The translations under genes were made by a program, and so were the position numbers. Positions 6,021-53,852 of a DNA stretch of 64,000 nucleotides are shown piece after piece. The notes below the pieces were generated by a model. The model was given only the letters and a program-made list of their open reading frames with translations, ran no database searches and was not told the origin of the DNA. The stretch is taken from positions 4,968,071 to 5,032,070 of the forward strand of contig NC_087380.1 of assembly GCF_963675165.1 (NCBI RefSeq), in the 5' to 3' direction. The stretch's first letter is position 1. Each line of letters begins with the position of its first letter. This stretch comes from Halichondria panicea. Lineage: Eukaryota; Porifera; Demospongiae; Suberitida; Halichondriidae.

Positions 6021-9000
6021 TTACACTGTTGACTGCTTCATCTCATCAGGAGCCATAGAGCTTTGGCGACCACGAACCTCCCTCTGTCGCAGTCCTATAG
6101 TAGTCTCATATTGACCATCAGGCTCTTGGTGATCTTGTTGGGAAACCAGCACTGGTAGATAATTGTCAGCATCATCTGGGAGCTACATGGATAAAATAAA
6201 TGAAAGCACTGGTAGGTAGGTAATTGTCAGCATCATCTGGGAGCTACATGGATAAAATAAATGAAAGCACTGGTAGGTAGGTAATTGTCAGCATCATCTG
6301 GGAGTAAAATAAATGAAAGCACCGCGGGTGGTGATGCTAGCTATTTGCTAATACACACGATTATTATAATGCTCTTATAGTAATTTTGCTTGCATGCTAC
6401 AGGGAAACTCAAAGAGTGGGAAATGATCGACCATGATTGATGCTAAAAAGGTAGTCTCATGAATCAGCCGCCGTTCCTTTGGAACACCGTCTGAGCACTC
6501 TTGTCATCGTTTTATGTGCCAAGACGGAATTCCGTCTTGACCAATCAGATTGCAGAAGTCCAGTCAGGTGATGAACTTGGAGGCAGCAAAGAACTGCACT
6601 TTGCTCAACGCATTTGGATAATCATTACGCATGCATTACGCATGGTAAACACTTTGTACATAGAAGCTGCTGCGAAGCATAAGCAAGCCAAGCAGGGTCC
6701 TTGGGCAAGATTTAGCACCACAAGTAAAACACAAATAGAGAGAGATGCCTTCGCTTGAAGATTTGTACATAACAATTAGCAAATACGTGTGGGCGTAAGA
6801 TCCCGAATTTAATTAAATTCCATTGGTTTTGTGAGCAATCAACATTCCATTTTAAATTGACTTCATGACAAGAGTGCTCAGACGGCGTTCCAAAGGAACG
6901 GCGGCTGATTCATGAGACTACTAAAAAGGATGCCAAAACTAAAACTAATGGCTGCTGCATCTGTGCAGTAGAGCCTTGCAGCTCTCTTCTCACTTTTGCA
7001 GCTACCAATAGCTAGCTTTCTAGTGCAGAGCTAACTATTTAGTAGAGTAGCAACACTCCATGGACAAGTTTTGCTACGCACTCTTCTGAAAAGGCTGCAA
7101 TAACATTCCAAACTAGGCATACTCATAAACAAAGCATTATTTTGCAAATCCACGAATTTAAACCAAAGAAAACATGACTAGAAGTCTATAGAAACTCTTA
7201 CTTGAACTTCATTGATCCTTGAGCAGCTGGAGCAGTCTACACAGACACACACAAAACACTACTGTATACCTCGCTTGCGCATGCACACCGAGGCTAAGAA
7301 ATTGATAATTAACACAACCCATTACTTAATTAGTGCTGTAATTTTCATCACCCTACACGACAATCAGTACATAATTATACTGATCGTCCTCAATTACTGT
7401 GGATCTATAGGTAGGTATCGCCAAATTAGGAAATGGATACGAAGACTGCCAAAGTAAGTGTTTGGTTAGTTTCGCCAAGTATTGCTAATAGAGCTCTGCT
7501 CAATGATTAACTGGCTAACTTACCTCCCAGAATTCCTCATCATCATACAAATGCTCATCATCCAGATTATTGAATGCTGGCAGACAATGCACAATAGCAC
7601 CTAAAAACAAAGTATGGTTAAGTTATTATACACAAAAATTGGTTCATGAGAGGTTCGAACCCTCGACCTTCGCGTTATCAGGATGATGCTCCACCGACTG
7701 GGCTAATGAACCAATTGACGACATTCCATGCATTTTTTCACAATTAACCCGAGCCCACCGCGGACAGAGGGGTTGTAGTAAACTAGTCGGTTGATTTGTT
7801 TGTTTGCCTGTTTGTAATTTCTGAGTCTGCTTACCTGGATGCCATAGCGCTGCATTTTACAGCATGGATGCCTTCACACAACAAGTTTTGACAGATTGAA
7901 GTTAAAGTTTAATTTGTTGTCGAATAAAAGCGAGCAAAAGCTAAGAAGCTTGCACGTTGGCTGCATGGCTAGCTAACTACACGCGGCCTTTATTCGAGGT
8001 GCATATCTGCAGCTGTAGTGATCCCGTACCAGGAACAATGGAAAAGGGGCACTCAAGTAGAAAGCTAAAATTATGACTGCGGTTGTTGCTTCTTTGCTTA
8101 TCCTAGCCCAGAACATACCAGAGCCTATTTTCAAGCTTATTTGCTGACTTTGCTGTGATCCTAGTCCACAGTGCCATTCAATGTTTTAGCATGCCTCTAG
8201 CCCACAATACGTTCTGGGTTAGGGTTAGGGGACCAGGAGCCATATTTTCAAGCTTAATTGTTTGCTGACTTTGCTGTGATCTTACATGTAGTCCACAGTG
8301 CCGTTCAAAGTTTAGCATGCCTCTAGTCTACATATTGCACCTGTTACTTGCTACTTAGCCAGCTAGCTTCCATGCTTATACATTCCTCTGGTTTCTATAG
8401 ATCTATATTATTTATCCAACAGCCGAGGGTTAGCAATATTAATTCAGTGCTCTAGTTATTATCTCACCCGTTAGCAATCCTCCCGCTATTGAAATAGTCA
8501 GTGTAGAGGCTAAGAGGGCTAACTGAAAGCCAGCTTGTGTCCCAGCATCTCTCCCTACTGAAGGTGATATCCCAAGACCTGAAAACTCAGTCACGTTGGC
8601 ACTTGGGGTTCGCGCAGGAAATACTAGGTACAGACTGCAGAACACAAATTACTTGTAATACATGCATGCATATAGACGAAAACGTTTGCTAACCTGGGTC
8701 CATAGGCAACCTTTCCATCAGCTGCGGAAATCTCGGCTACGCCTGCTGCAATAGCAGAGGCTATTCCAGAGAATACACCAGGCAATCCATGAAGATTGTG
8801 AACCCCACAAGTGTCTTGAATGTATATCTTCTCAAGGCAGTCCTGTAGAGTTGTCAGCACAACACAACCTTAGTTCAGTAGTCAGTTCATAGATAAGAAG
8901 ACCAAGCAAAAAGCACGACGTATTATAGTAGCTAAAATTAATATGCCACAACAGACTAGTGCTAACTCTATAACAAACAGTGTCGTAATACACCAATGCA

Positions 9001-39522: not shown

Positions 39523-39856
39523 TACCGTATAGCGAGTATATTTCGAGGGTATAAATTTTCGCGGATGGACCATTACAAAGGATTTCGCGGATTTTATTTT
39601 CGTGGTCTGAGTTCCAGCCTTTTGGCGCATGCGCACATCAACATGCAGCTGTTACCACACACCGTTAGCCTCGAATCCAGGCCTAGCCTATAACGGTGAG
39701 GCACCTCTTATTGTCGATAGGTGTGGTCAATAATACTGAACACGCCTACTATTCAATAAAGATATAAATTTTCGTGGGTATAAATTTTCGCGGTAGAGGC
39801 TCAATCCGCGAAAACCGCGAACATTTATACCCTCGAAATATACCCGCTATACGGTA
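39523..39856. mobile_element. MITE of the TACCGTATAGCGGGTA family, copy c
   Basis: Full left end TACCGTATAGCGAGTATATT … CGAGGGTATAAATTTTCGCG; full right end CGCGAACATTTATACCCTCG … AATATACCCGCTATACGGTA. 334 bp with a near-TA flank on both sides. The interior includes a second GTATAAATTTTCGCGG copy and a TAGCCTCGAATCC word near 39666. Confidence 0.8.
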
Positions 39857-41479
39857 ACCTTCCATCAGATTTAACCCAACAATGAATCATTATCACTATA
39901 ATTGAAAATTGAAGGCCTCCGTTAAAGAAGGGATTGCTGCACTAACTTACCTGCGTAGATCAAAGAAGCCCCAGCTACAATATGGACAGTCGAAAGCAAC
40001 TAGTTAGAGACTTTGCGCTCACTCTTAACAAAGGTTAAAGGTAGCAATCAATCATTGATTTCAATCATGGAGAACTTTTACCTCCGTTTTCTTAAATATA
40101 CGAAATGTGACCCACTGAGCTAGGGCTGTAATGCTGACCCTACAGTTGAACACTCATCTACCTTGGTTAATATTATAGTATCAATGATAGTATCACTGAT
40201 AGTCATTTTCATATACTACATCACAACGCCTCTCAAGCCAAGATTATAGATTATGACAAAGAGTATAGAATGCAGAATGCAAACTACTGCATGGACCACC
40301 ACTTGTGTCATCACAACACAGGTAAATATTTGAAGCTCAAGCATGCAAACCAAGACTAAACAGTCTTGTTTTGACACACACTATGCATGCAAAAACATTT
40401 TCTGCCCTGGTGATTAATCATGTTACAATTATGGGATAAAGTGTTTGAATACCACAGTCAGAAGGTCACAATATTTAAATTACAGTAACTGTATTCTTAT
40501 TACAACAACCCCCCTTGGCCCTTGGCCAAATAGGGGTCAACACCTTGCTATCGTAAACACACTACTTTTATTGTGTGATCTGCTAGCCACAACTGCTTAA
40601 TGATATGGTTTCCACATGTCTCCCTTTGGAAAAGACCCCATGCATCAACTGTCCTATAACCATGTTTGGGCATCAGTTATGGATATTATTTATATACTAA
40701 GCTTACTCAAATTTACACTGATATACCTACCATGCACACGAACAAATCTCGAACTATTAAATGTAGCTATTATAGCTAGAAAGGCAACAAGTAGACTGTG
40801 CAATTACTAATACGATGTAGTAAGGCTAAGAGTGCAATATGAGATATGGCACGAGCAACAAGCAATGGCATGGATACTAATTGCACGAGGGTGTAGTCGA
40901 GTGCTATTAACCTTGCCAGTGCTTGTTATGAGTGCTATTAATCCACGAGTAACCATACTATTGATTTCTAATCGTGTATGATGAAGTTCTCTGCAGTTTT
41001 TAATAAAAATTTCGGCCACGGCCGTCGAAAACAATACATTGTCATTGACAGTGTGCAATTTCTTGACAGGTAATTGCACGCTGTCAATGACGACGTGCAA
41101 TTACTGAACCGGATGTGATACGGGATTAATTGCTATACACTCTCCTGTCGCTAATACTGAACACATCATACGATTATACCGGTAATGAAATACATCTGTT
41201 ATTTCTGGCCTTGTATTTTAATACCTAGGATCTGTGTGGGTGGCTTCCACCAATGATATCTATTCACCCACTGTAAATGAAGGTTTATAAACAACAGCCA
41301 AATAAAGTCATAACAGGTCTACTATTTTTATCACAAATTACACCTATAATGTGACTTCTTTGCTGACACATCTCAGTCAAACAAAGTATAGTGAAACAAA
41401 ATATTGTGTGTGGAACTCCAGGAATCAGAAGGTAAGTATTAGCTAACTGCAATGGCACACTCAAGGTGGTGTAGTTTAT
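39857..41479. other. Intergenic upstream of the beta-helix gene
   Basis: No exon recognised. The TTGACAGTGTGCAATTTC / GCACGCTGTCAATGAC words near 41044-41090 form an imperfect inverted repeat. An untranslated first exon for the 41480-46084 gene could end near 41492, because ATGATG there is preceded by …cttgtacag. Confidence 0.4.
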
Positions 41480-44400
41480 TTGAATCTTGTACAGATGATG
41501 TATCGATCTACATTGAAGGCCTCCATGACAATGAATCAATGCAACGTGGTGATACTGATTGTACTTAATCTCATAACAGTGGTGAGCCCAACTATATCTG
41601 AAATTGTAGAGTCTTTTGATGATTGTGAGACAAATGCATGCAATTCACTACTGCATCACAACTTCAGTAACAAACCGAGTGTAATTTTGCATCTACTTCC
41701 CGGAACGCAATATGTGCCCCAACACATTTCAATCACTAACATTGGTACCGTAGAAATCGTTGGAAATGAAACGAACCTACTATTTGAAGAATTAGGTGCT
41801 CTCGTCTTCAAAAATATCACCAAGTTAATTATGAGGAATTTGAAACTACTAGAGCAAGTTGCAGTTGATATCACCATGGTTAAGGATATACTGCTTGAAA
41901 ATTGTTATGTGAATGGAAAAGGATTGAAGAGTGCGCTTTATATCGCCAATGCTCACACGGTATCCATTGCCGACTGTCACTACACAACATCTCGAGGTGG
42001 GGCTTTGTCGGTGAAGGATGTAATTCATCTGTCGATTAAAGAGAGCTCGTTCAAACACAATAAAACTTCTAATTTTGTACTGAATGGGACAATTGTTCTA
42101 GAAAATATTCAAACAGCCATTATAGATAACTGTACTATGATCAACAACAGTGTTAACTGCCGTACAAAAGGTTGTAAAGGTGGAGCAATTACATCAATCA
42201 ACACACACCAACTACGAATTTTGAACTCTATATTTAAATGGAACACAGCATATGGTGTTAATGCCGTTCATGGCATAGGTGGAGCTATCTACTCCGAAGC
42301 AGATCAACTAGAAATAACCAACTGTCAGTTTGAAAAAAACAGTGCTAATTTTGGTGGATCTGTCTACATTAGTCAAGGCTCTTTAAGCAGCTCCTTCAAT
42401 ACATATAAACTGAACCAAGCTACAGGTGCTGGTGGAGCAATTTACATTCAAGGACACATTTCCACATCAATGGATCACTTCAACTCTAATAGTGCAAACT
42501 ATGGGGGTGCAATTTGGGCTCTTACCAGCAACGCTACCAGTTTTGACAACCATTTCACAGAGAACAATGCATCGTATAGTGGAGGGGCATTTTTCTTTAG
42601 TCTTGCCATGAATGGATTTTTTAAGAGCTCCCAGAATCGGTTTAGTAAAAACAAAGCTATTTCTGAAAGGGGAGGAGCTATATACATGCTGTTAACTACA
42701 ACTTCTGCTACAACCCATTGCTTAGAGCAGCACCAACGCTGTACCGATCTTGCTGGTATTTATCAAGGTGAAAAACTTTTTTCAGGCGTAGGCGTATTCT
42801 CTAGCTTCAATGATACCTATACGATGAATACAGCAAACAGAGGGAGTGGTGGGGCTATCTATGCTGTGACTATCACTAGCTATATTAAATCGGCTAGATT
42901 TATCAGAAATCAAGCATGGCAACAGGGTGCTGCAATTTCTCACGTCGGAAACTCACTTGAAAGTATTGATACTGAGTTCTCTTACAACAATGCTTGCGAC
43001 AATAGTACACTATACATCAATTCCGCCACTCTTGTGAGCAAAGATTGCAGATTTGTTAGCAACAATGGATCACTCTTTGTTGTGAATAGCGTCATTGAAA
43101 TTGATGGGGTTACTCTATTTGCGAACAACCTTGGTATTACAGGAGGGGCAATAACGAGTATCCAAAGTCTCATTTCTTTTGTGGGTAGTGGAAATGTAGC
43201 TATCACAGGGAACAAGGCGGAGCACGGAGGAGGAATATCATTGTTTGAAAGTCAATTAAATGTTTCATGCTCAGTAAATATTTCAAAGAATGTTGCAACA
43301 CATACTGGAGGGGGGATTTATGCATATCGAAGTTCTATCTCATTTCAGGCACGAAAAGAAGTTATCTCAATGGAACTCACCAAAAACACTGCTTTGTTTG
43401 GGGGCGGATCCTATCTCTTTGCTTCAACAATAAAAATATTTCAAGACGAATTTATGTTAATGAGTCGCTCAAGACTAATCTATTACAATAATAGTGCAGT
43501 GCTTGGAGGAGCACTGTACCTAGATCAGACATCAAAAATATATTTCTACAGAGTGCTGTCTGCTCCTGAAAACATTTTTGACATAGAGTTTTGTCAGAAC
43601 ATTGCAAACTATGGAGGTGCTGTTTACATATCAGACGATACAGCATCGAGTCAGCTGTGTGAAAACACAAAGAAAAGAAATTCTGACCACTCTGAAGCCG
43701 ACTGCTTTATTCAGATACTTCAATTAGGAACTGTTGCAGTAGAAAATCCACCGAGCAAGCAGCAATACCAGCAGCACGACTACACAATCTCTTTAAAAGA
43801 CAATGTAGCAAATGTGAAAGGGAGTGCATTGTTTGGAGGATTATTTGACCGATGTTCTTTGAACTATATTGCAGAAGACGTAACTACCACTACTGAACCA
43901 AATTATTACCAGGCAATCTACATGATGACATTCTGGGACAACAAAAATCTGAGTAGCCTCATAGCATCAAATCCTGCACAAGTGTGTTTCTGTACCAATG
44001 TACTAAACAACACATATAACTGTACTACAACAAAATTGATTCTATCGATGAGAAGAGGTGAAACATTTAAAGTTGGGATAACAGCTATTGATCACATTCA
44101 AACTCAACTCGCAGCAACAATAGCAGCTACATTTAGTTCAAATGGTGGTGTCGGGGTATTTAAGAACGGGCAGACACGTCAAACTATTGAGAAAACCTGC
44201 ACAGAAGTGGAGTACAATGTTTACTCAAGAGAAACAGAGGTGCAGTTAGACATCTATGCTGATGGCCCTTGCAGCAATAAAGGGCTCTCAAAGAAGATAT
44301 TAGAAGTGACATTCCAGCCATGTGAGTGCCCAATCGGATTTAAGCCAACAGAAACTAAAACTGAATGTGTGTGCGACTGTGATAAAGAATTGTATGGGAA

Positions 44401-46084
44401 TGTACACAACTGCTCCGTTGCTGATGAGACTCTACTACTATCAATGAATACCTGGATTGGATATGTCAATGATACAAACAACAACACAGGATTTATCATG
44501 CAGACTTGTCCATACGATTACTGCTTGGTGAGACCCATCAACATATCGTTTACCGCTCCAAACGGTATGGACATGCAGTGTGCTTTTAATCGAGCAAATT
44601 TACTCTGTGGAGAATGTGAAGAAGGGTTTAGTCTAGTTCTTGGCTCATCAAGATGTATGATATGCACAAATAAGTTTTTGTCGCTTATGATTCTATTTGC
44701 TTTTCTTGGTGTACTGCTTGTAGTGTTCATCTTGATCCTGAACATGACTGTTGCAGTGGGAGCAATACACGGATTGATTTTTTACGCAAACTTCATAGGG
44801 ACCTCCCAATCAATTTTCTTTGCAAATCACGAAACTGACGTTCTGAAAGTTTTTATCTCATGGCTGAATCTTGACTTTGGTATCGAGACATGTTTCTACA
44901 ATGGAATGGATGCGTATGCAAAGATTCTATTACAATTGACATTTCCATCATACTTAATCCTGCTAACAATCACAATAATCATTTTATGTGAACATTCTCA
45001 ACGTTTTGCGAGGCTTCTAGGTAGCAGAAATCCAGTAGCAACTCTCTGCACACTTATTCTATTATCTTACTCCAAACTGCTAAATACAATCATTGGAGCC
45101 TTGCAGTTCACATATATTCATTACCCGAATGGAACCTATGAGACTGTTTGGTTGAACGATGCCAATGTTCTCTACTTTGAAACTAGTCACATTCCCAGAT
45201 TTGTAGTAGCCTCTATCGTTCTATTACTTGGAGCGATCTGTACCATACTGTTATTTTTTGGACAATGGCTGCCGCGATTTTCAAACTGGAGAATATTACG
45301 ATGGTCTAAACATCCAAAATACAATGCGTTCATTGATGCATACCATGCTCCTTTCACTCCAAAGCATCGCTATTGGGTAGGACTGCTGTTGCTTGTTAGA
45401 ATTGTGTACAATTTAGTAGTGTCACTCAAAGCTGATGACTCAGTTGCTCTACTATCGACAGCTGCTGCTGCACTGTTTCTCATTCTACTAAAAATGCTAC
45501 ATACAAAGACATATAAAAATTGGGCTGTGGACTTCATAGAAAACACATTTCTTATCAACCTCATAATTTTATCACTAGGTACATTTTACATCAGAGAGTC
45601 TAGCAACAAGGAAGTACCCCTCATTGCTATTTCAGTAGCGATCACTTTCTTGGAATTTTTAGCTATTTTCTTCTATCACTTGTACCAGCATCTCCTTCGA
45701 GAGTCCAAGGTTTGGAAAAAACTGAAGGTGTTAGTACCTGTAAGAAGAGCTAATCCCAACATTATTTTGGCCGATTATCAACTACCACAGATACTGAGAG
45801 AGAGTGATCAAGACGATACAGATGAGAGTGATGATGAACCAGATCAATGTCCTGACTATACACAAACCGAAGATAGTTCAGCCACAAATTCAGTGAGCGA
45901 TCGCCGCTATGACCCACCAATCATCCAGTCTGCTCTGAACTTGAGCGAGTTACGATTTCCTTACATGGACATCCTAGACCCTGTAACCCCTGAGCACTAC
46001 AAGGGTACCATGAAGAAGAAAAAAAGTCCAACCACTCCTAAACCTGTAACAACCACTTTTGTACACGGACCAAGGCAAAACTAA
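41480..46084 (+). CDS. Giant beta-helix (Pmp-like repeat) multi-pass membrane protein
   Basis: An intronless 1534-codon frame; no named gene recognised. Order: hydrophobic signal (NVVILIVLNLITVV, residues ~22-35; the real start may be Met16 or Met18); parallel beta-helix region (~60-830) with about 15 GGA(I/L/V)-type turns from ~173 to ~712 (GGAIYSE, GGAIYIQ, GGAIWAL, GGAIYML, GGGIYAY, GGALYLD) alternating with F-x-x-N strands, like Pmp / pectin-lyase-fold repeats; a cysteine-rich stalk (~945-1065: CECPIGF, CVCDCD, CGECEEGF, CMIC); then eight or nine hydrophobic segments (~1067-1400); and an acidic Ser/Pro cytoplasmic tail ending in a KKKKSP patch. Many N-x-S/T sites in the ectodomain suggest a surface glycoprotein. 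The fold is inferred from repeats. The membrane part is channel- or receptor-like, but I cannot name it. AATAAA lies just after the stop (~46127). Confidence 0.85.
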   Translation: MNLVQMMYRSTLKASMTMNQCNVVILIVLNLITVVSPTISEIVESFDDCETNACNSLLHHNFSNKPSVILHLLPGTQYVPQHISITNIGTVEIVGNETNLLFEELGALVFKNITKLIMRNLKLLEQVAVDITMVKDILLENCYVNGKGLKSALYIANAHTVSIADCHYTTSRGGALSVKDVIHLSIKESSFKHNKTSNFVLNGTIVLENIQTAIIDNCTMINNSVNCRTKGCKGGAITSINTHQLRILNSIFKWNTAYGVNAVHGIGGAIYSEADQLEITNCQFEKNSANFGGSVYISQGSLSSSFNTYKLNQATGAGGAIYIQGHISTSMDHFNSNSANYGGAIWALTSNATSFDNHFTENNASYSGGAFFFSLAMNGFFKSSQNRFSKNKAISERGGAIYMLLTTTSATTHCLEQHQRCTDLAGIYQGEKLFSGVGVFSSFNDTYTMNTANRGSGGAIYAVTITSYIKSARFIRNQAWQQGAAISHVGNSLESIDTEFSYNNACDNSTLYINSATLVSKDCRFVSNNGSLFVVNSVIEIDGVTLFANNLGITGGAITSIQSLISFVGSGNVAITGNKAEHGGGISLFESQLNVSCSVNISKNVATHTGGGIYAYRSSISFQARKEVISMELTKNTALFGGGSYLFASTIKIFQDEFMLMSRSRLIYYNNSAVLGGALYLDQTSKIYFYRVLSAPENIFDIEFCQNIANYGGAVYISDDTASSQLCENTKKRNSDHSEADCFIQILQLGTVAVENPPSKQQYQQHDYTISLKDNVANVKGSALFGGLFDRCSLNYIAEDVTTTTEPNYYQAIYMMTFWDNKNLSSLIASNPAQVCFCTNVLNNTYNCTTTKLILSMRRGETFKVGITAIDHIQTQLAATIAATFSSNGGVGVFKNGQTRQTIEKTCTEVEYNVYSRETEVQLDIYADGPCSNKGLSKKILEVTFQPCECPIGFKPTETKTECVCDCDKELYGNVHNCSVADETLLLSMNTWIGYVNDTNNNTGFIMQTCPYDYCLVRPINISFTAPNGMDMQCAFNRANLLCGECEEGFSLVLGSSRCMICTNKFLSLMILFAFLGVLLVVFILILNMTVAVGAIHGLIFYANFIGTSQSIFFANHETDVLKVFISWLNLDFGIETCFYNGMDAYAKILLQLTFPSYLILLTITIIILCEHSQRFARLLGSRNPVATLCTLILLSYSKLLNTIIGALQFTYIHYPNGTYETVWLNDANVLYFETSHIPRFVVASIVLLLGAICTILLFFGQWLPRFSNWRILRWSKHPKYNAFIDAYHAPFTPKHRYWVGLLLLVRIVYNLVVSLKADDSVALLSTAAAALFLILLKMLHTKTYKNWAVDFIENTFLINLIILSLGTFYIRESSNKEVPLIAISVAITFLEFLAIFFYHLYQHLLRESKVWKKLKVLVPVRRANPNIILADYQLPQILRESDQDDTDESDDEPDQCPDYTQTEDSSATNSVSDRRYDPPIIQSALNLSELRFPYMDILDPVTPEHYKGTMKKKKSPTTPKPVTTTFVHGPRQN

Positions 46085-48125
46085 AAACCAATGTATATAT
46101 ATTAGTGATACAAAGTTGAAGTGTATAATAAAGTTGTCTAAGCGATACAAAGTTGAAGTGTCTGTAAACGAAGTATGTAGTTAATTATTATTACATACTT
46201 CGTTTACAGACAAATTATTAACTACATACTTCGTTTACAGACAATTTTGTCTGCATGTAATCACAATGATGATAATGATGGAGCCTGCAGGATTGGTCAG
46301 GCACCAGAAACGTGGAAACAATTAGAAAGCAGGAGAGTGTCGTCCATCACAAAGTCATGAACATGCACACACGTACAGGCCAATTTAACAATGCAAATGA
46401 TTTTCATATTTCGAATAAAAGAATTAGTGTTTCGCTGACACCAGTCCTCACGATATACCATGCATACATATAATGATCCAGTAACTAGACCTCTGAATAT
46501 AGCTTGAATAAAATAATGACTATAAATGTTCACGTCTTAGTTAAAACTTCCTAATACAGTCATCATCATTAATATTGCAGTGATCCAGACATAAGTAGAA
46601 AGTCCAAAATTTCGTATGTTTTCTCAGTAAGATTGGATTGACACACAGCTTTTTGGTACTTTCCCTGTTTAAATAAAAATATTACTGAGGTCTTATACTC
46701 CACATTATACACATTTCAAATGTTTTTCCAGTTGCGTGTATGTATGCATACATACTGCACACTCGGAGTGTACAGTATTTATGGTGTATGTCATAATTAT
46801 GGAGGTAATAAATGCAAGCAGAATAATTGAGGGGCACAGTGCTCAAATAGTATCAACCACAATCACAGGCCCTCAGCTATAGAGCCACTTTTACTAAATA
46901 TGCATAGATCTACATGCATAGGAAGTTAACACCCCTAATGTGCATTTTTCTGGCTTAACATTGATCCTCAGGATGAAGGGATATGAGCATAGATCTATGC
47001 TGTGAGGCAATGTAATTTCTACTTAGAATGTACACTGCCTACAGCATCCTATTGGTAAGTTGTTTTTTATGAGTGTAACTGCACATGTATACATACAGAG
47101 CATGTATATCCATGTAACGATAAAATAGTAAAGATATGCTGTATTTTAAGTATGTAAAAGCAATTTGTCTCATCGTAATAAATTTGAGTTGTTGATTTTT
47201 TTTTTGAAAATTGGGTATACCGGGGGAGGGGGCAGAAGTAATCTCAAAAATAAGTGATTTTAGAGGAATATCTATGTGTTAAAACAGTTGCCAGTGGCCT
47301 CTGTAAGTCGGTCTCAGCACTCGTAAGCACCGACAAAACAGGGTTCTCTTAAAGAAGAGAAATTGCTGTAAAATTCTGTTGCCTTGGGAACACGGAGAGG
47401 CTGGAACCACTTAAACTTGTTTAACCGAAACTTCTAGCTGGCTACTATATCTAGTTTTGGTGTCTGTAAACTTTAAAGAGGTGATTAAATTTTCATGGTC
47501 TTACCTAGAGGCTAGCACAAGAGCACTGATTGATATTATCTCTGCTTCTGAGCACTACGCTAGAAGTATTCTGCACAAGTGTTTTAAAAAGCCACTATCA
47601 GTGCTAAGTGGTTCCAGTTTCCTCTATGTCGTGAAATGTACGTTCATTTCATAAGGGTTCCAGTTTCCTCTATGTCGTGAAATGTACATTCATTTCCATA
47701 AGAGAGCAGTAACTACTTTTTGCTGTTGTACAAGTGATGGTTGATGCTTATTGTTGTATAAAAAAAGAACTCCAAGTAACACAGTTGTGTGAAGCAATAG
47801 CGTGTAAGTGTCAGCAACACCCTCCTCACATAACAAAAAAAAAATTCACTACATGCATGGCACAGTTGTATTCCGTATCTCCAGGAGCATGTATTGACAG
47901 TTGTATTCCGTATCTCCAGGAGCATGTATTGGACATTTGAGATTGTACATGTATCAAATTCCTTGAAGGTATCTATCTGATATCTGGTGGCATCTAACAT
48001 ACTGTGTGGAGTGTGGGTGTGATGTATGCACCATCTATAAAAGGGCTATACTCTGGCTATATCAATATAGCTGAATCTGAGTTTACTTAGTTCTGAAGGA
48101 CCAAAATTGACTGACTGCCTTTAGC
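46085..48125. other. Intergenic with hairpins and short tandem duplications
   Basis: GATACAAAGTTGAAGTGT is duplicated (~46107 and ~46144). TGTCTGTAAACGAAGTATGT (46159) is followed by two inverted copies ending at 46212 and 46243. A ~47-bp duplication (GTTCCAGTTTCCTCTATGTC) is at about 47610-47702, and GTTGTATTCCGTATCTCCAG is duplicated at about 47865-47935. No gene recognised; small open frames lack features. Confidence 0.6.
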
Positions 48126-51100
48126 ATGCTGCTTATGGTGAGTGCTATTCTCGTTCTGGGACTGCATTCAGTGGCAGCTGCACCAGGTAAGACTCTTAAT
48201 GTACGGGTCTGTATGTACGTAGGATCCAACCCAGAGTTTATAATGTGTATAATAATTATGGATAGATTTGAATGATCCTCCACACAGTCTGAGAAAAGTG
48301 ATTTGTATGCCGTGATTTATATTAATCTACTCTGCAGGTGTACCTACGTTCGTACAAACACTAAGCAATGTTGAAGTTGCTGAGGGAATGTCTGCTACTT
48401 TTGTGTGTGAAGCCAGGTCCTCAGGAAACACAGCTGTTACAATATGTTGGTTCAAAGTAGCTCTGAACAGTTCTACTCAGATTGCAATTGACAGCACTGA
48501 TTCAAGACTGTTCACTATCCAACAACAAAATAAAAAGGTTTTAAGTACCTTCACTTTGAACAATGTGTCCGTGTCGGATGCTACCACATATCTTTGTAAT
48601 GCCAAGACAGATACTGAAACTATTACAAGTTCCGCAAATTTAACTATTGTGACATCGATGAGTCCACATTCAATCTCAGCCACCACATCAATAGAGCTTA
48701 TATCGACTACAACGCTTATTGGACTGTTCGACAGTGAATCTTTTAATACAGTAATTACACTTGAAGCCACGTCAACATTTGTTGCAGTATCAAGCACACA
48801 ATCCAACAGCTACAGTCGTGCTTATGCTGATTCATCAATTCTAAGCAGTACACCATCAATCAAGGACACACAAACTGTATCCAGTACACACACTCCGGGG
48901 TCTTCACTAGTTCCAACATCAACTGTTCATTCACTAATCTCTGATACACAAAATATTCGTCCGACTATCACACAATCTAGTACTTCATCGGCCGTAGAAA
49001 TACCAAATGTTAGTGCATCACAAGTGATTAGCACTGATGTACTAACTATGAGTACACAAGGCTTTGAGTTGCCCAGTGCCCAACCCTCAATTTCTCCAAC
49101 ACTAACTGTTCATTCACTAATCTCTGATACACAAGACATCCGTACGACTATCACACAATCTAGTACTTCATCAGCCGTAGAAATACCAAATGTTAGTGCA
49201 TCACAAACAATGATTTATAGTCAATCTTTGAGCACTGATGTACTAACAACAAGTACACGGATCTCCACTCAAACCAGTCAACTCTCAAATGCTTTGATTT
49301 CATCAGTTTTCTCCACACCTCTTCTAACTAAGAGTACTCAAAGCATAGCTACGATGGCAATGAGTCAATCCTTTAGCTTGGTTTCTCCAACATCAACTCC
49401 GTTAATGATGCAACCTGTTCTAACGTCGAATGGAAAATACTCTATCACAACTATACCTACTTTGTACACAACATTGTCAAGTACGCATTTGTTTTCCTCG
49501 GGTATGCCAGCTACAACAACCCACATCACACAAGAACATTCTATCACCACCAACGTCCCAACTTCCACTATAACAGTAGTGCCAGGTACAGTTTCGTCAA
49601 CAATTGCATATCAGTAATAATTAATATTTTTTTAGGTCAACTTCATTGTCTATCTGATCAAGATGAAGTGTGGGGAATTGATTGGCCCACCACTGGAACA
49701 AACACATGGAGTTTAAGGAATTGTTCACATCAATCAGGTGGATCGGATTCAATCACAGGTTAGAACACCTCCATAGTTTCACATCTCCTATCTTTAAAGT
49801 TGCAGGACAAGCAAGACGCTATTGTTCTTTCAGAGGCATGTGGGACGAACCTGATGTCAGTAGATGCCGAAATAGGGAATTTACTAACATTTTAACTCAG
49901 GTTAGATATAGCTTAAAGCAATTTTCAGCAAGTATGGTATAACTTGATGTAGGCATCGGAGTTTGACAGGAATACGGAACTGGTTGAGCAAGTAACTACA
50001 GTGATATCTCAGCTTGCTGCTGCAACTATCTCAAACGGTTCTCTTCTTCTACCTTCCTCTCTTGATGCTACCAATAAAGTTCTGAAATCTGCCATAGATG
50101 CTCTAGACGAAGTGGAAAACGTCACGATAATCCTTTCTGAGGTGGGATGAAAATGTAGTATTTATCAGTTCTATCATTCATGTATGTAGTTCCTAGCTGA
50201 TGTGCTAAGCCGTGCTTTGGAAAGCACCAACGGTCAGAGCTGGATGGCTTTGGAATCTAATAGTGTAAGTTATTCATATGTATCATATATACCCGACACA
50301 CTAGCTTAAATTATACTTGTGTGTAGGTGTAGATGAATCAGGTGGAATTTTTCTCAGTATTATATACGTATACATTACTACACACCCTATTGAATATCTA
50401 GTGAATCAGATCAGGTAGAAAATTAGTGAATTCTTCTCGGGTCATAATCTGCCAGCTAGTTTTTCCTATGATACAGAAGAATGCAGGCAGCCAGTTACTG
50501 TTGAGTAATATTGAAAGAGTCGGAGAGCTGCTTGCTCGGGCACAGGGAAACAGTGGATCGACAAAACCAATTCAAATAGTTCGAGCCAACATTGGTACAG
50601 CCTTTGTGTAGATAATTCATTGTGTACTAACTACTCGTGTCAATGTGTCTTCTTTCACAGCAATTTCAGCGAAACAGTATGATGGTTCCTCAATTGTTGA
50701 CTCAGATGAATTAATGTTTCCTAAAGAAGAAGACTTTACATCTGATTTCCCAGTAATGCAAGCTCAAATTCAAATACCTCCTAACCTTGTGAAAGAAAGA
50801 CTGAGCCAACAAAGTCCAAAATATGGTAAAGTCTGACAACACGACATACAATGTAATTTTGCTTTTGCATTTTTATAGGAGCTGTGACTGTGCCAGTGGT
50901 GATGATGCTCATTCAGAACATAGTGTCTTTTCTCCCTTCCACTGCCCCTGGTCTCAACAACACTCGAGGGGCGTCGGCTCTCCTCACCGCTCAAGTTGGG
51001 GCACGAGAAAACAATGATATATCATCTGATCCCGTATCACTTACCTTTGGCGTTGATAGTGTAAGTATTCATGACTAAAGGCCCCCGATAATTATATACA

Positions 51101-53852
51101 AGCATGTATCAATGAGTTGTAACATTATGCGCGTGAGAGGGAGCAATCTTAATTTTACACATCCTCAGATAAATTAGCTTATGCGTTCACAATGTTTTCA
51201 CAATGTCCTACATATTATGTTGTAGAATGAAAACATTTCCAGTTATCACTGTGTATTCTGGAATTTTTCAAATCCGTAAGGCACCGTTCAACATTTCAGA
51301 GCAGTGTAAATGTAAATATTACTCTTCTAATTCTGATAGAATTGGAAGTGGTAGCTGGAGCGTTAAAGGACTTGAAACAGATGGAGTGACTTCAAAGGGG
51401 TCAATGACTACTGTAAGGTGTAGCAGCACCCATCTCACTAGCTTTGCAGTGCTCGTCAGTGTAGGTACAACAAGGGAGGTACGTAATTTAGGGAAAGGCA
51501 TGTATGTACGTGTACATCACAACAACCGTTTACTTTTTTTTGTAGAACACTGCTTTACAAGTTGTCTCCTACATTGGCTGTATCATCTCCATACTCTGTC
51601 TTCTTGTTACAATCATTTTCTTCCTGTCACATAGGTACCTACGTTAGTTTTATTGTCATCTTAACATAAAGATTTTCTTCTTTCTCCATAGGAGAGAGCT
51701 ACTTACTACCAAAATCCACTACTTCATTCACTTGAATCTCTCCCTTTCTCTTCTGTTGGGGTACATTGTCTTCATTACGGGTGTTGAAACTGCAATTGGA
51801 AGTAAAGTATGTTAATTTACATAATACTTTCTGACTTTATATACCGTATATATAGCGGGTAATTTTCGTGGGGTAAATATTCATGGTTTTCGTGGTTGAA
51901 GCTTTAATCACGAATATTTTACCCACGAATGAAGTAGCCTCGAGACCAGCCGTTCGTTATCTGAAAGAACGCCTGGTCAAGTTCTAATGTAGAACACTTG
52001 TAATTGGTCCAGGAATTCTTGGACTGGTAATTGCCGGTAATTGCCCGCAACAACCATACTTGCCCGCGAATATCATTATGATGCTTACAGTAACGTGCAG
52101 CTAGCTATAGTATTGTTGTGTTTGCGGTTACCGCAATCGTGCATGTTCACAACTACTCAAGCCTAACCACTCACTGACCAGGCGTTCTTTCAGATAACAA
52201 ACAGCTGATCTCGAGGCTACGAATGAAGCGACCTTGCCTACCTTTGCCTGCAGTGCTAATCCACAAAGTGACTAAATATTGCTCAACCACGAATGTTTTG
52301 CCTCCCGAAAATTACCCGCTATACGGTATACGTACATGCATATATATGAATGCTACTTACTCCATGCAGGGTGGTTGTGCATTTGTGGCTGCTGTCTTGC
52401 ACTACTTGTTCCTGGCATCTTTCTGTTGGATGCTTTGTGAAGGGGTGATGCTCTACCTCATGTTGGTACTTGTTTTCACTCAGCTGAAAGATAAATGGTG
52501 GTTTTTCTTGCTTCTTGGTTACTGTAAGTTATTAAATTGTCCTGGTAACTTGAATTTGTTTTACTCCAAAATGTATAGTGCCTCCCTTGGTGATAGTAGT
52601 TGTTAGTGTGGCAATTCGGTGGGAAGACTATGGAGTGAAAGATGACGAAGAAAATTTAAAATTGTTGGTTGAAATATTTTAAAACTATTATGTTTGTCAT
52701 AATAATAATTTTACAGTTGCTGGTTGTCGACAAACAATGGGACAATTGCGGCCTTTATAGCTCCAATGTTGCTGATAATTGGGGTATGTTATTCTTTTGT
52801 GCACATAAATTTATATATAATTATATATACATAATTTCATTCCGACCACATAGATCAACATTGTGTTTATGGGCTTTGCATTACGTGTCATTTGGAAGAG
52901 TAAAAAGGGTGTTTTGAAGAGAACAGTGCAAAATGACAAAGAAAAGAACTCTTCACTGAAATTAGTGAAGTAATTGAAGCATGCATGTATTAATCCACCT
53001 ACTACTGTACGTCATCTCTATGCAGATCACTGCTGATAGGAGCTGTTGTTTTCCTTCCTCTTCTTGGAATGACGTGGGTGTTTGGAGTGCTTGCTGTCAA
53101 CCAGAACACAGCGTTTTTTGCCTGGATTTTCACTATACTCAATTCTCTGCAGGTAGCTACATGACGTATAGACTCTATTGTGCATGCATCTATGGGGACA
53201 CTTCTTGTACATTATTGACAATTCCAAGAGCACTTCCACTGTTTTCAGCCAATTTACAGAGTATATAGAGTCTCTAAAATAGTTGTTTTTATGCAGTCAT
53301 CAAATCTACATTGTACACTTTTTACATTATCCATTATCACTACAGGGAGCATTTTTCTTCTTCTTTCATGTCATTAGAACCGATAAGGTGAGTGTCTCAC
53401 TACCACCGCAATAGTATGTTGTTTTCACTGAAGATTTCACTTACAGGTGTTGCAGAAAATCAAGGCATTCTTGCATATTAAAACGGTATTAAAGTTTAAC
53501 CCTCTTCCAACGTGTACACAGATTTTTACTATATACTCACTTTCCAGGGTTTGAGTTTTGCTTCCATGAAAAATCAATACACGTTGAGATCTGGTAATGA
53601 ATAAAATATTTTCTTATCGCTGCAAATAATTATAGTTTTTTCCTCCCAATAGGTTCAAGTACCATTAAAAGTACGCTATCACGTGCTGGAGATTCGAGCA
53701 CCATTAAAAGTACCCTATCATATGCCGGGACAATGCAGTTGCATTGTAATCCTAGCAACGAGGATTTAGAGATGAGTAATGATCACGAGAAAGACATATA
53801 TGGGTCCGAGGAGAAAGTTTCTACTACTTCACTGTCCAACACGTACTCGTAA
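48126..53852 (+). CDS. Adhesion GPCR with Ig, mucin-like, HRM and GAIN/GPS domains
   Basis: Family B2 receptor of about 1167 residues in 22 exons: 48126-48186, 48338-49585, 49636-49737, 49806-49900, 49953-50141, 50190-50264, 50477-50594, 50661-50825, 50879-51060, 51226-51275, 51340-51478, 51546-51634, 51692-51806, 52370-52523, 52579-52663, 52717-52783, 52854-52969, 53026-53152, 53346-53387, 53447-53485, 53548-53593 and 53653-53852. Order: signal peptide (MLLMVSAILVLGLHS), one Ig-like domain (FVCEA…ICWF…TTYLCNA), a ~330-residue Ser/Thr mucin stalk with a duplicated TVHSLISDTQ segment, HRM domain (LHCLS…RNCSH…YCSFRG…SRC), GAIN helices, GPS (CVFWNF, GSWS, VRCSSTHLTSFAVL; HL|T site present, GC and one further Cys missing), seven TMs (FCWLSTNNG, GMTWVFGVLAVN), and a tail with a duplicated SSTIKSTLS unit. 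The donor of the fifteenth exon (TT|gttggt) is weak but is the only one keeping phase. Ligand unknown. Confidence 0.92.
51842..52329. mobile_element. MITE of the TACCGTATAGCGGGTA family, copy d, host of a nested MITE
   Basis: Left end TACCGTATATATAGCGGGTA then AATTTTCGTGG; right end CCCGAAAATTACCCGCTATA then CGGTA. It sits in a TA-rich flank, consistent with a TA target. It lies in the GPCR intron between the TM2 and TM3 exons and is interrupted by the element at 51935-52219. Confidence 0.82.
51935..52219. mobile_element. 285-bp MITE, 9-bp TSD, TAGCCTCGAG ends, nested
   Basis: ~46-bp inverted repeats: TAGCCTCGAGACCAGCCGTT … TTATCTGAAAGAACGCCTGG on the left, and the mirrored copy ending CTCGAGGCTA at 52219, with a few transitions. 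A perfect 9-bp direct repeat, CGAATGAAG, is at 51926-51934 and 52220-52228. Removing the insert restores the host MITE. Confidence 0.9.

What the first reader, a model, noticed from the sequence alone, without database searches (positions are those of the whole stretch)
41480..46084. Intronless 1534-codon beta-helix protein joined to an 8-9 TM module
A Pmp/pectin-lyase-type repeat ectodomain (about 15 GGAI-class turns), a Cys-rich stalk and a polytopic membrane domain with a charged tail make an unusual combination that I cannot assign to a named animal family. Being intronless in a region of heavily spliced genes suggests retroposition, lateral origin, or a family that spreads as single-exon copies. 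A surface sensor, adhesion molecule or channel are all possible.
Basis: partly seen in the sequence, partly recalled or inferred. Interest (0 to 1): 0.85.

Follow-up and report, generated by a model that had tools for sequence, protein, structure and literature searches.

The report
Large family of beta-helix membrane proteins
The gene is one of a large group of related genes in this animal genome that encode an outward-facing, repeat-built rod joined to a nine-pass membrane module; it looks like an undescribed set of cell-surface recognition receptors whose function has not been tested.

Summary
Window 41495-46084 (+) is one long coding exon: signal peptide, Pmp-type repeat ectodomain (16 GG motifs; shuffled mean 1.0, maximum 5 of 2000), Cys-rich stalk, a membrane module that fits nine crossings (N out, C in) and a charged tail. 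It is not a lone oddity: three searches of the same genome give 178 loci with this membrane module, 130 of them with open frames of 1000 aa or more and no stop in the match; 122 of 178 lie within 25 kb of another (random mean 12). These are lower bounds. A C-terminal motif (LREPLLD type; LRFPYMD here) recurs in 22 of 25 tails, 9 of the 12 diverged ones. A strong candidate 63-nt intron ends at the window gene's ATG, and copies are clustered, so retroposition is unlikely. The repeats match many prokaryotic proteins weakly; the membrane module matched none in prokaryotic or viral collections. Best explanation: a lineage-expanded family of surface recognition receptors with a faster-evolving rod and a conserved membrane module. 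Ligand, signalling and surface location are inferred. Single-sequence structure predictions failed. The nearest named family, DUF7630, covers only the Cys junction, and the window protein scores below its cut-off.

The parts
41432..41494 (+). candidate 5' UTR intron, 63 nt, ending directly before ATG 41495
   Evidence: AAG|GTAAGT ... CTTGTACAG|; score 17.5, null mean 6.7, 0 of 100 shuffles reach it; no RNA evidence
41495..46084 (+). coding sequence in a single exon, from the first ATG to the stop
   Evidence: open frame
41525..41596 (+). signal peptide (residues 16-39)
   Evidence: hydropathy peak at residues 21-39; no dedicated predictor was run
41597..43849 (+). ectodomain, residues 40-790, with 16 Pmp-type GG motifs between residues 173 and 712
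   Evidence: profile match to Rhombotarget A
43862..44314 (+). conserved block, residues 795-945, read as beta-rich by eye
   Evidence: alignment; fold not tested
44321..44665 (+). Cys-rich stalk, residues 948-1062
   Evidence: invariant Cys
44576..44665 (+). DUF7630-like junction, residues 1033-1062 (CGxC and CxxC)
   Evidence: E 0.027, 15.0 bits against a cut-off of 27
44678..45679 (+). membrane module, residues 1067-1400, about nine crossings
   Evidence: hydropathy and loop charges; alignments
45680..46081 (+). cytosolic charged tail, residues 1401-1534
   Evidence: placed inside by charge
45950..45970 (+). tail motif LRFPYMD (residues 1491-1497), LREPLLD type in relatives
   Evidence: 22 of 25 tails match the pattern
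46127..46132 (+). AATAAA, possible polyadenylation signal 43 nt after the stop

Best explanation
The protein belongs to a lineage-expanded family of cell-surface recognition receptors. Supported by the sequence: a hydrophobic signal peptide and a Pmp-type repeat ectodomain precede a Cys-rich stalk, a membrane module that fits nine crossings, and a tail that the charge pattern places inside the cell; in close paralogues the ectodomain changes faster than the membrane module, which is under purifying selection; the genes are clustered and keep the coding part in one exon. Inferred: the repeat rod binds ligands such as microbial or cell-surface glycans or proteins, the stalk passes binding to the membrane module, and the tail motif engages a common cytosolic partner for trafficking or signalling, so that different copies would recognise different ligands through one shared output.
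For: repeats; topology; 178 TM-supported loci, 130 with frames of 1000 aa or more and no stop in the match, clustering; dN/dS in the 14 closest pairs: ectodomain 0.45-0.68, stalk 0.20-0.45, TM 0.17-0.38; tail motif in 22 of 25 tails; 14 invariant columns in 15 members.
Against: No ligand, expression, localisation or signalling evidence. Ectodomain dN/dS stays below 1, so positive selection is not shown, and the tail is about as free (0.22-0.71). Ectodomain swapping was tested and is inconclusive. The membrane module matches no known receptor in Pfam or PDB sequences. Fast ectodomain change and tandem expansion also fit adhesion or structural proteins. The fold of both halves is unproven.
Confidence: 0.5

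Rival explanations
1. Adhesion or extracellular-matrix anchor: the rod holds cells to each other, to the matrix or to a coat, and the membrane module is mainly an anchor. Copy number reflects dosage or tissue variety, not recognition of many ligands.
For: Long repeat ectodomain and Cys-rich stalk; ectodomain under overall purifying selection.
Against: A simple anchor needs one helix, whereas the membrane module is the better conserved half with 14 invariant columns over diverged members, and a tail motif recurs.
Confidence: 0.22
2. Ligand- or force-gated channel, or a transporter: the nine-pass module forms a pore or carrier and the rod with its stalk gates it.
For: Multi-pass module with many conserved aromatic, Gly and some charged positions.
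Against: No Pfam ion-channel or transporter match at E up to 10 and no PDB sequence match. A fold comparison was not possible.
Confidence: 0.15
3. Retroposed or laterally acquired gene: the single exon reflects reverse transcription or a bacterial donor.
For: Single coding exon; Pmp-type repeats shared with bacteria.
Against: Candidate 5' UTR intron; clustering; no relative of the membrane module in prokaryotic or viral collections; prokaryotic matches of the repeats are weak and scattered. The intron is strong in only 3 of 22 tested genes.
Confidence: 0.05
4. A largely decaying family, in which most copies, perhaps this one, are no longer used.
For: 5 of 106 TM matches contain stops and 33 of 106 lie in frames under 1000 aa; L018, L025 and L026 are broken.
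Against: The window frame is intact; dN/dS well below 1 in all 14 closest pairs; 130 of 178 loci have long frames without a stop in the match.
Confidence: 0.04

Closest known systems
DUF7630 (Pfam PF24633)
   Same: The Cys junction before the first membrane helix matches weakly in 13 of 13 close members and in 7 of 7 diverged members scanned (these had been chosen through that match). 9 of 150 scored places in the genome pass the Pfam cut-off.
   Different: The model has 45 positions and covers neither ectodomain nor membrane module. The window protein is below the cut-off (15.0 against 27 bits), and its place is not among the 150 scored.
Chlamydia Pmp / POMP repeat proteins (PF02415, TIGR01376)
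   Same: GG-type repeats above both curated cut-offs.
   Different: No autotransporter barrel match; helical membrane module, Cys-rich stalk and tail instead.
Rhombotarget A (PDB 9cdu)
   Same: A profile of 13 family members matches it at E 2.7e-6 over profile positions 278-483, in the repeats.
   Different: The match is limited to the repeats.
Adhesion GPCRs
   Same: Long outward ectodomain, multi-pass module, cytosolic tail (works-like resemblance; family features recalled).
   Different: No GPS or 7tm match in Pfam; nine rather than seven crossings fit best.

Membership tests
Pmp / autotransporter | GG-type Pmp repeats | tested here: met
Pmp / autotransporter | C-terminal autotransporter beta-barrel | tested here: not met
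   no such Pfam match at E up to 10; hydrophobic helices instead
DUF7630 (PF24633) | score above the curated cut-off | tested here: not met
   window 15.0 against 27 bits; 9 of 150 scored places elsewhere in the genome pass
Adhesion GPCR | GPS motif and 7tm domain | tested here: not met
   no match at E up to 10
TRP / PKD channels | recognisable channel domain by sequence | tested here: not met
   no Pfam match at E up to 10; no PDB sequence match to stalk+TM profile at E up to 10
TRP / PKD channels | channel fold | tested here: inconclusive
   single-sequence model of mean pLDDT 49.0, not searched
Processed retrocopy | no intron in the transcribed region | tested here: inconclusive
   strong candidate 5' UTR intron argues against it, but there is no RNA evidence
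Right-handed parallel beta-helix | solenoid in a confident structure | tested here: inconclusive
   mean pLDDT 33.9; repeat families and the Rhombotarget A match only
Cell-surface receptor | surface location, ligand and signal | not testable with these tools
   topology inferred only

The most novel reading that the evidence does not exclude
This is an undescribed class of animal recognition receptor: a repertoire of well over 150 mostly single-exon genes that pairs a diversifying beta-helix rod with a conserved nine-pass module and a shared tail motif, used to tell microbes or self from non-self.
Probability: 0.25. Interest if true: 0.88.

Novelty: new variant of a known kind. Interest (0 to 1): 0.6.

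Why it matters
How early-branching animals recognise microbes and kin is an open question, usually approached through NLR and similar families (recalled; an NLR study of a sponge, PMC12909245, was seen in passages). A second repertoire of this size, facing outwards, with a diversifying rod and a shared output module, would give concrete genes to test. It would also attach a function to a membrane module that no Pfam model covers.

Tried and rejected
Structure: two AlphaFold2 jobs on the window protein alone gave mean pLDDT 33.9 and 49.0. No fold search was run on them, because a low-confidence model gives meaningless matches.

Retroposition and lateral origin were weighed and put at low probability. 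The collection scans rely on two short peptide patterns each, so they can miss distant relatives; the stalk was scanned in viral contigs only.

Ectodomain swapping between paralogues: the nearest relative changes from block to block. The TM data reject the group L002+L005+L009+L011 (p-AU 3e-54), which the ectodomain tree shows with weak support only (43/74), and the group was named after seeing trees. The ectodomain data do not clearly reject the TM pair L004+L010 (p-AU 0.066), nor do the N-terminal data (0.34). Inconclusive.

5' UTR intron in the family: of 22 genes tested, 6 have p <= 0.05 (window, L004, L008, L011, L014, L016) and 3 beat all 100 shuffles (window, L014, L016); 16 do not stand out. 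L009 gave no usable start; L017, L018, L025 and L026 were left out beforehand. The automatic start choice was evidently wrong for L013 and L015.

Tail motif: the pattern was written after looking at the tails, and 13 of the 25 are close relatives. Of the 12 diverged tails 9 match; L024 (YREPLLDD) misses the pattern, L013 and L019 lack it.

Host: only a COX1-like nuclear fragment and no mitochondrial contig were found; the ATP-synthase c search did not help.

PF02415 searched against the genome gave no match at E <= 0.001; the model has 19 positions, so I do not read this as absence.

Literature: (open-access library; titles and abstract starts of the listed rows only; one search listed 12 of 24 papers, 12 of 1,246) showed no description of this family. 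One search was a listing only. PMC3386278 (passages) has a table row of 18 segments with 2 pectin-lyase-like ones in a study whose test set was a sponge proteome; whether this is the same family cannot be told. PMC12909245 (passages) has no 'pectin'; PMC12716839 (passages) has no 'pectin' or 'beta helix'.
Full report
What is there. The frame 41447-46084 (+) is open for 1545 codons, 1534 counted from TTG 41480; its first ATG is 41495. Residues below count from TTG 41480. A hydrophobic stretch (21-39) reads as a signal peptide. The ectodomain has Pmp-type repeats: Chlam_PMP E 1.6e-8 with 5 stretches, POMP_repeat E 1.3e-9, and 16 GG-type motifs, 12 of 15 spacings 24-36 residues, against a shuffled mean of 1.03 and a maximum of 5 in 2000. 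A profile of the window protein and 12 paralogues matches Rhombotarget A (9cdu) at E 2.7e-6 over the repeats. I call it beta-helix-type from the repeat families, not from a structure: AlphaFold2 on the single sequence failed (mean pLDDT 33.9). Behind it come a conserved block (795-945, beta-rich by eye, not tested) and a Cys-rich block ending in CGxC...CxxC at 1043-1062. That junction matches DUF7630 weakly in 13 of 13 members (best E 4e-4; window E 0.027 and 15.0 bits against a cut-off of 27).

Membrane module. Hydropathy averaged over 15 members gives nine peaks of 1.3 or more, the second near residue 1130; the window sequence alone also shows a weakly hydrophobic stretch at 1089-1107. Loop charges alternate: K+R/D+E are 1.9/0.1 (TM3-4), 6.7/1.7 (TM5-6), 2.0/0.3 (TM7-8) and 4.5/0.8 (tail) on the inferred inside, and 1.3/3.8 (TM2-3), 1.8/2.5 (TM4-5), 0.3/0.8 (TM6-7) and 1.1/0.9 (TM8-9) on the outside. 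With a secreted N-terminus this fits nine crossings, with one of the two candidates between TM1 and TM3 (1089-1107 or 1121-1139) not crossing. I set the segment borders by hand. Beyond weak single matches no Pfam family covers the module, and a stalk-plus-TM profile finds no PDB chain at E up to 10.

A large family. The full-length search scored 30 of 595 candidates, all 30 in open frames of 1464-2847 aa. The TM-module search scored 106 of 392, weakest E about 1e-99, so more are to be expected; a diverged member's module scored 105 of 437; DUF7630 scored 150 of 349. Merging places on one strand closer than 2.2 kb gives 229 loci, 178 of them with a TM-module match; 131 of the 178 have open frames of 1000 aa or more, 130 without a stop in the match. 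122 of 178 have a neighbour within 25 kb, 104 of these on the same strand, against a mean of 11.8 and a maximum of 26 in 200 random placements. One contig, C6, holds 83 of 178. Of the 106 TM matches, 5 contain stops and 33 lie in frames under 1000 aa, so broken or shorter copies exist; L018 has one in-frame stop, and L025 and L026 are split between frames.

Diverged members share the plan. I chose 12 places from the DUF7630 search (L013-L024, 12 of 150). All 12 have the CGxC junction, for which they were chosen, and a multi-pass module; 10 of 12 also have a long ectodomain in the same frame, L017 is 695 aa and L018 is interrupted. Fourteen columns are invariant in the 15-row TM alignment. A motif of type LREPLLD near the C-terminus is found in 22 of 25 tails, against a mean of 0.08 in shuffled tails; in the window protein it reads LRFPYMD. 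The pattern was drawn after looking and 13 tails are close relatives, but 9 of 12 diverged ones match. That it binds a shared cytosolic partner is inference.

How the genes arose. A processed retrocopy would lack introns, the 5' UTR included. The window gene has AAG|GTAAGT (GT at 41432), a CTAAC branch-like sequence and CTTGTACAG ending at 41494, directly before ATG: 63 nt, score 17.5 against a null mean of 6.7, reached by 0 of 100 shuffles. A neighbouring kinase gene has a 75-nt intron. L014 and L016 have candidates as strong; of 22 genes tested 6 have p <= 0.05 and 16 do not, so the intron is not shown for the family. Clustering points to tandem duplication. The membrane-module profile found no relative in viral contigs or prokaryotic genomes, the stalk profile none in viral contigs. 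The repeat profile found 120 prokaryotic relatives, of which the best 80 were listed at 24-40% identity over many phyla: a generic repeat, pointing to no donor.

Selection. In the 14 closest pairs (NG86), dN/dS is 0.45-0.68 in the ectodomain, 0.20-0.45 in the stalk, 0.17-0.38 in the TM module and 0.22-0.71 in the tail. The alignment over repeats is uncertain, so the ectodomain values are rough. Pairs with the window gene are mostly saturated at synonymous sites. Positive selection is not shown.

How it most likely works. I take it as a surface recognition receptor: rod outside, stalk as lever, membrane module as output, tail motif as link to the cytosol. The layout, family size and rate pattern rest on the calls above; ligand binding, signalling and surface location are inferred. 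Adhesion and channel remain possible.

Comparison. By the tests done it is not an autotransporter, not an adhesion GPCR and not a channel recognisable by sequence. It shares the DUF7630 junction with an unnamed group. From memory only, similar long uncharacterised proteins occur in other invertebrates; no other animal genome was available to check this. Eight literature searches listed no description (open-access library, listed rows only). I rate it a new variant of a known kind, an expanded family of surface proteins with a solenoid ectodomain, rather than categorically new.

Noticed in passing
window, about 48.1-51.6 kb: Downstream lie an Ig-domain frame (48316-49614, E 6.8e-11) and a frame with a GPS motif (51173-51631, E 1.5e-7); if one gene, an Ig-type adhesion-GPCR-like candidate. 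That they are one gene was not shown.
   Followed up: partly
G000, mainly C13, C14 and C7: At least 102 NACHT matches (102 of 265 candidates scored), a large NLR-type repertoire: 33 on C13, 23 on C14, 17 on C7, 8 on C6.
   Followed up: partly
window 7639-7713: ARAGORN reports a tRNA-Ile with anticodon GAT on the minus strand, unusual for a eukaryotic nuclear genome (recalled); it may be a false positive.
   Followed up: no
window about 39524-39860: A stretch of about 335 bp with inverted ends, read by eye, looks like a small MITE-type element; a similar-looking stretch follows paralogue L006.
   Followed up: no
G000 C1:5280527-5280718: A COX1-like fragment with 2 TGA codons, a likely nuclear copy of mitochondrial DNA; the only COX1 match found.
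   Followed up: no
L012, C-terminal tail: L012 carries the LREPALD form of the tail motif while its close relatives mostly carry LRLSYMD; possible gene conversion.
   Followed up: no
G000 C17:3882281-3986671: A separate same-strand cluster of 9 DUF7630 matches in frames of 595-1322 aa; the one fetched, L013, lacks the tail motif.
   Followed up: partly
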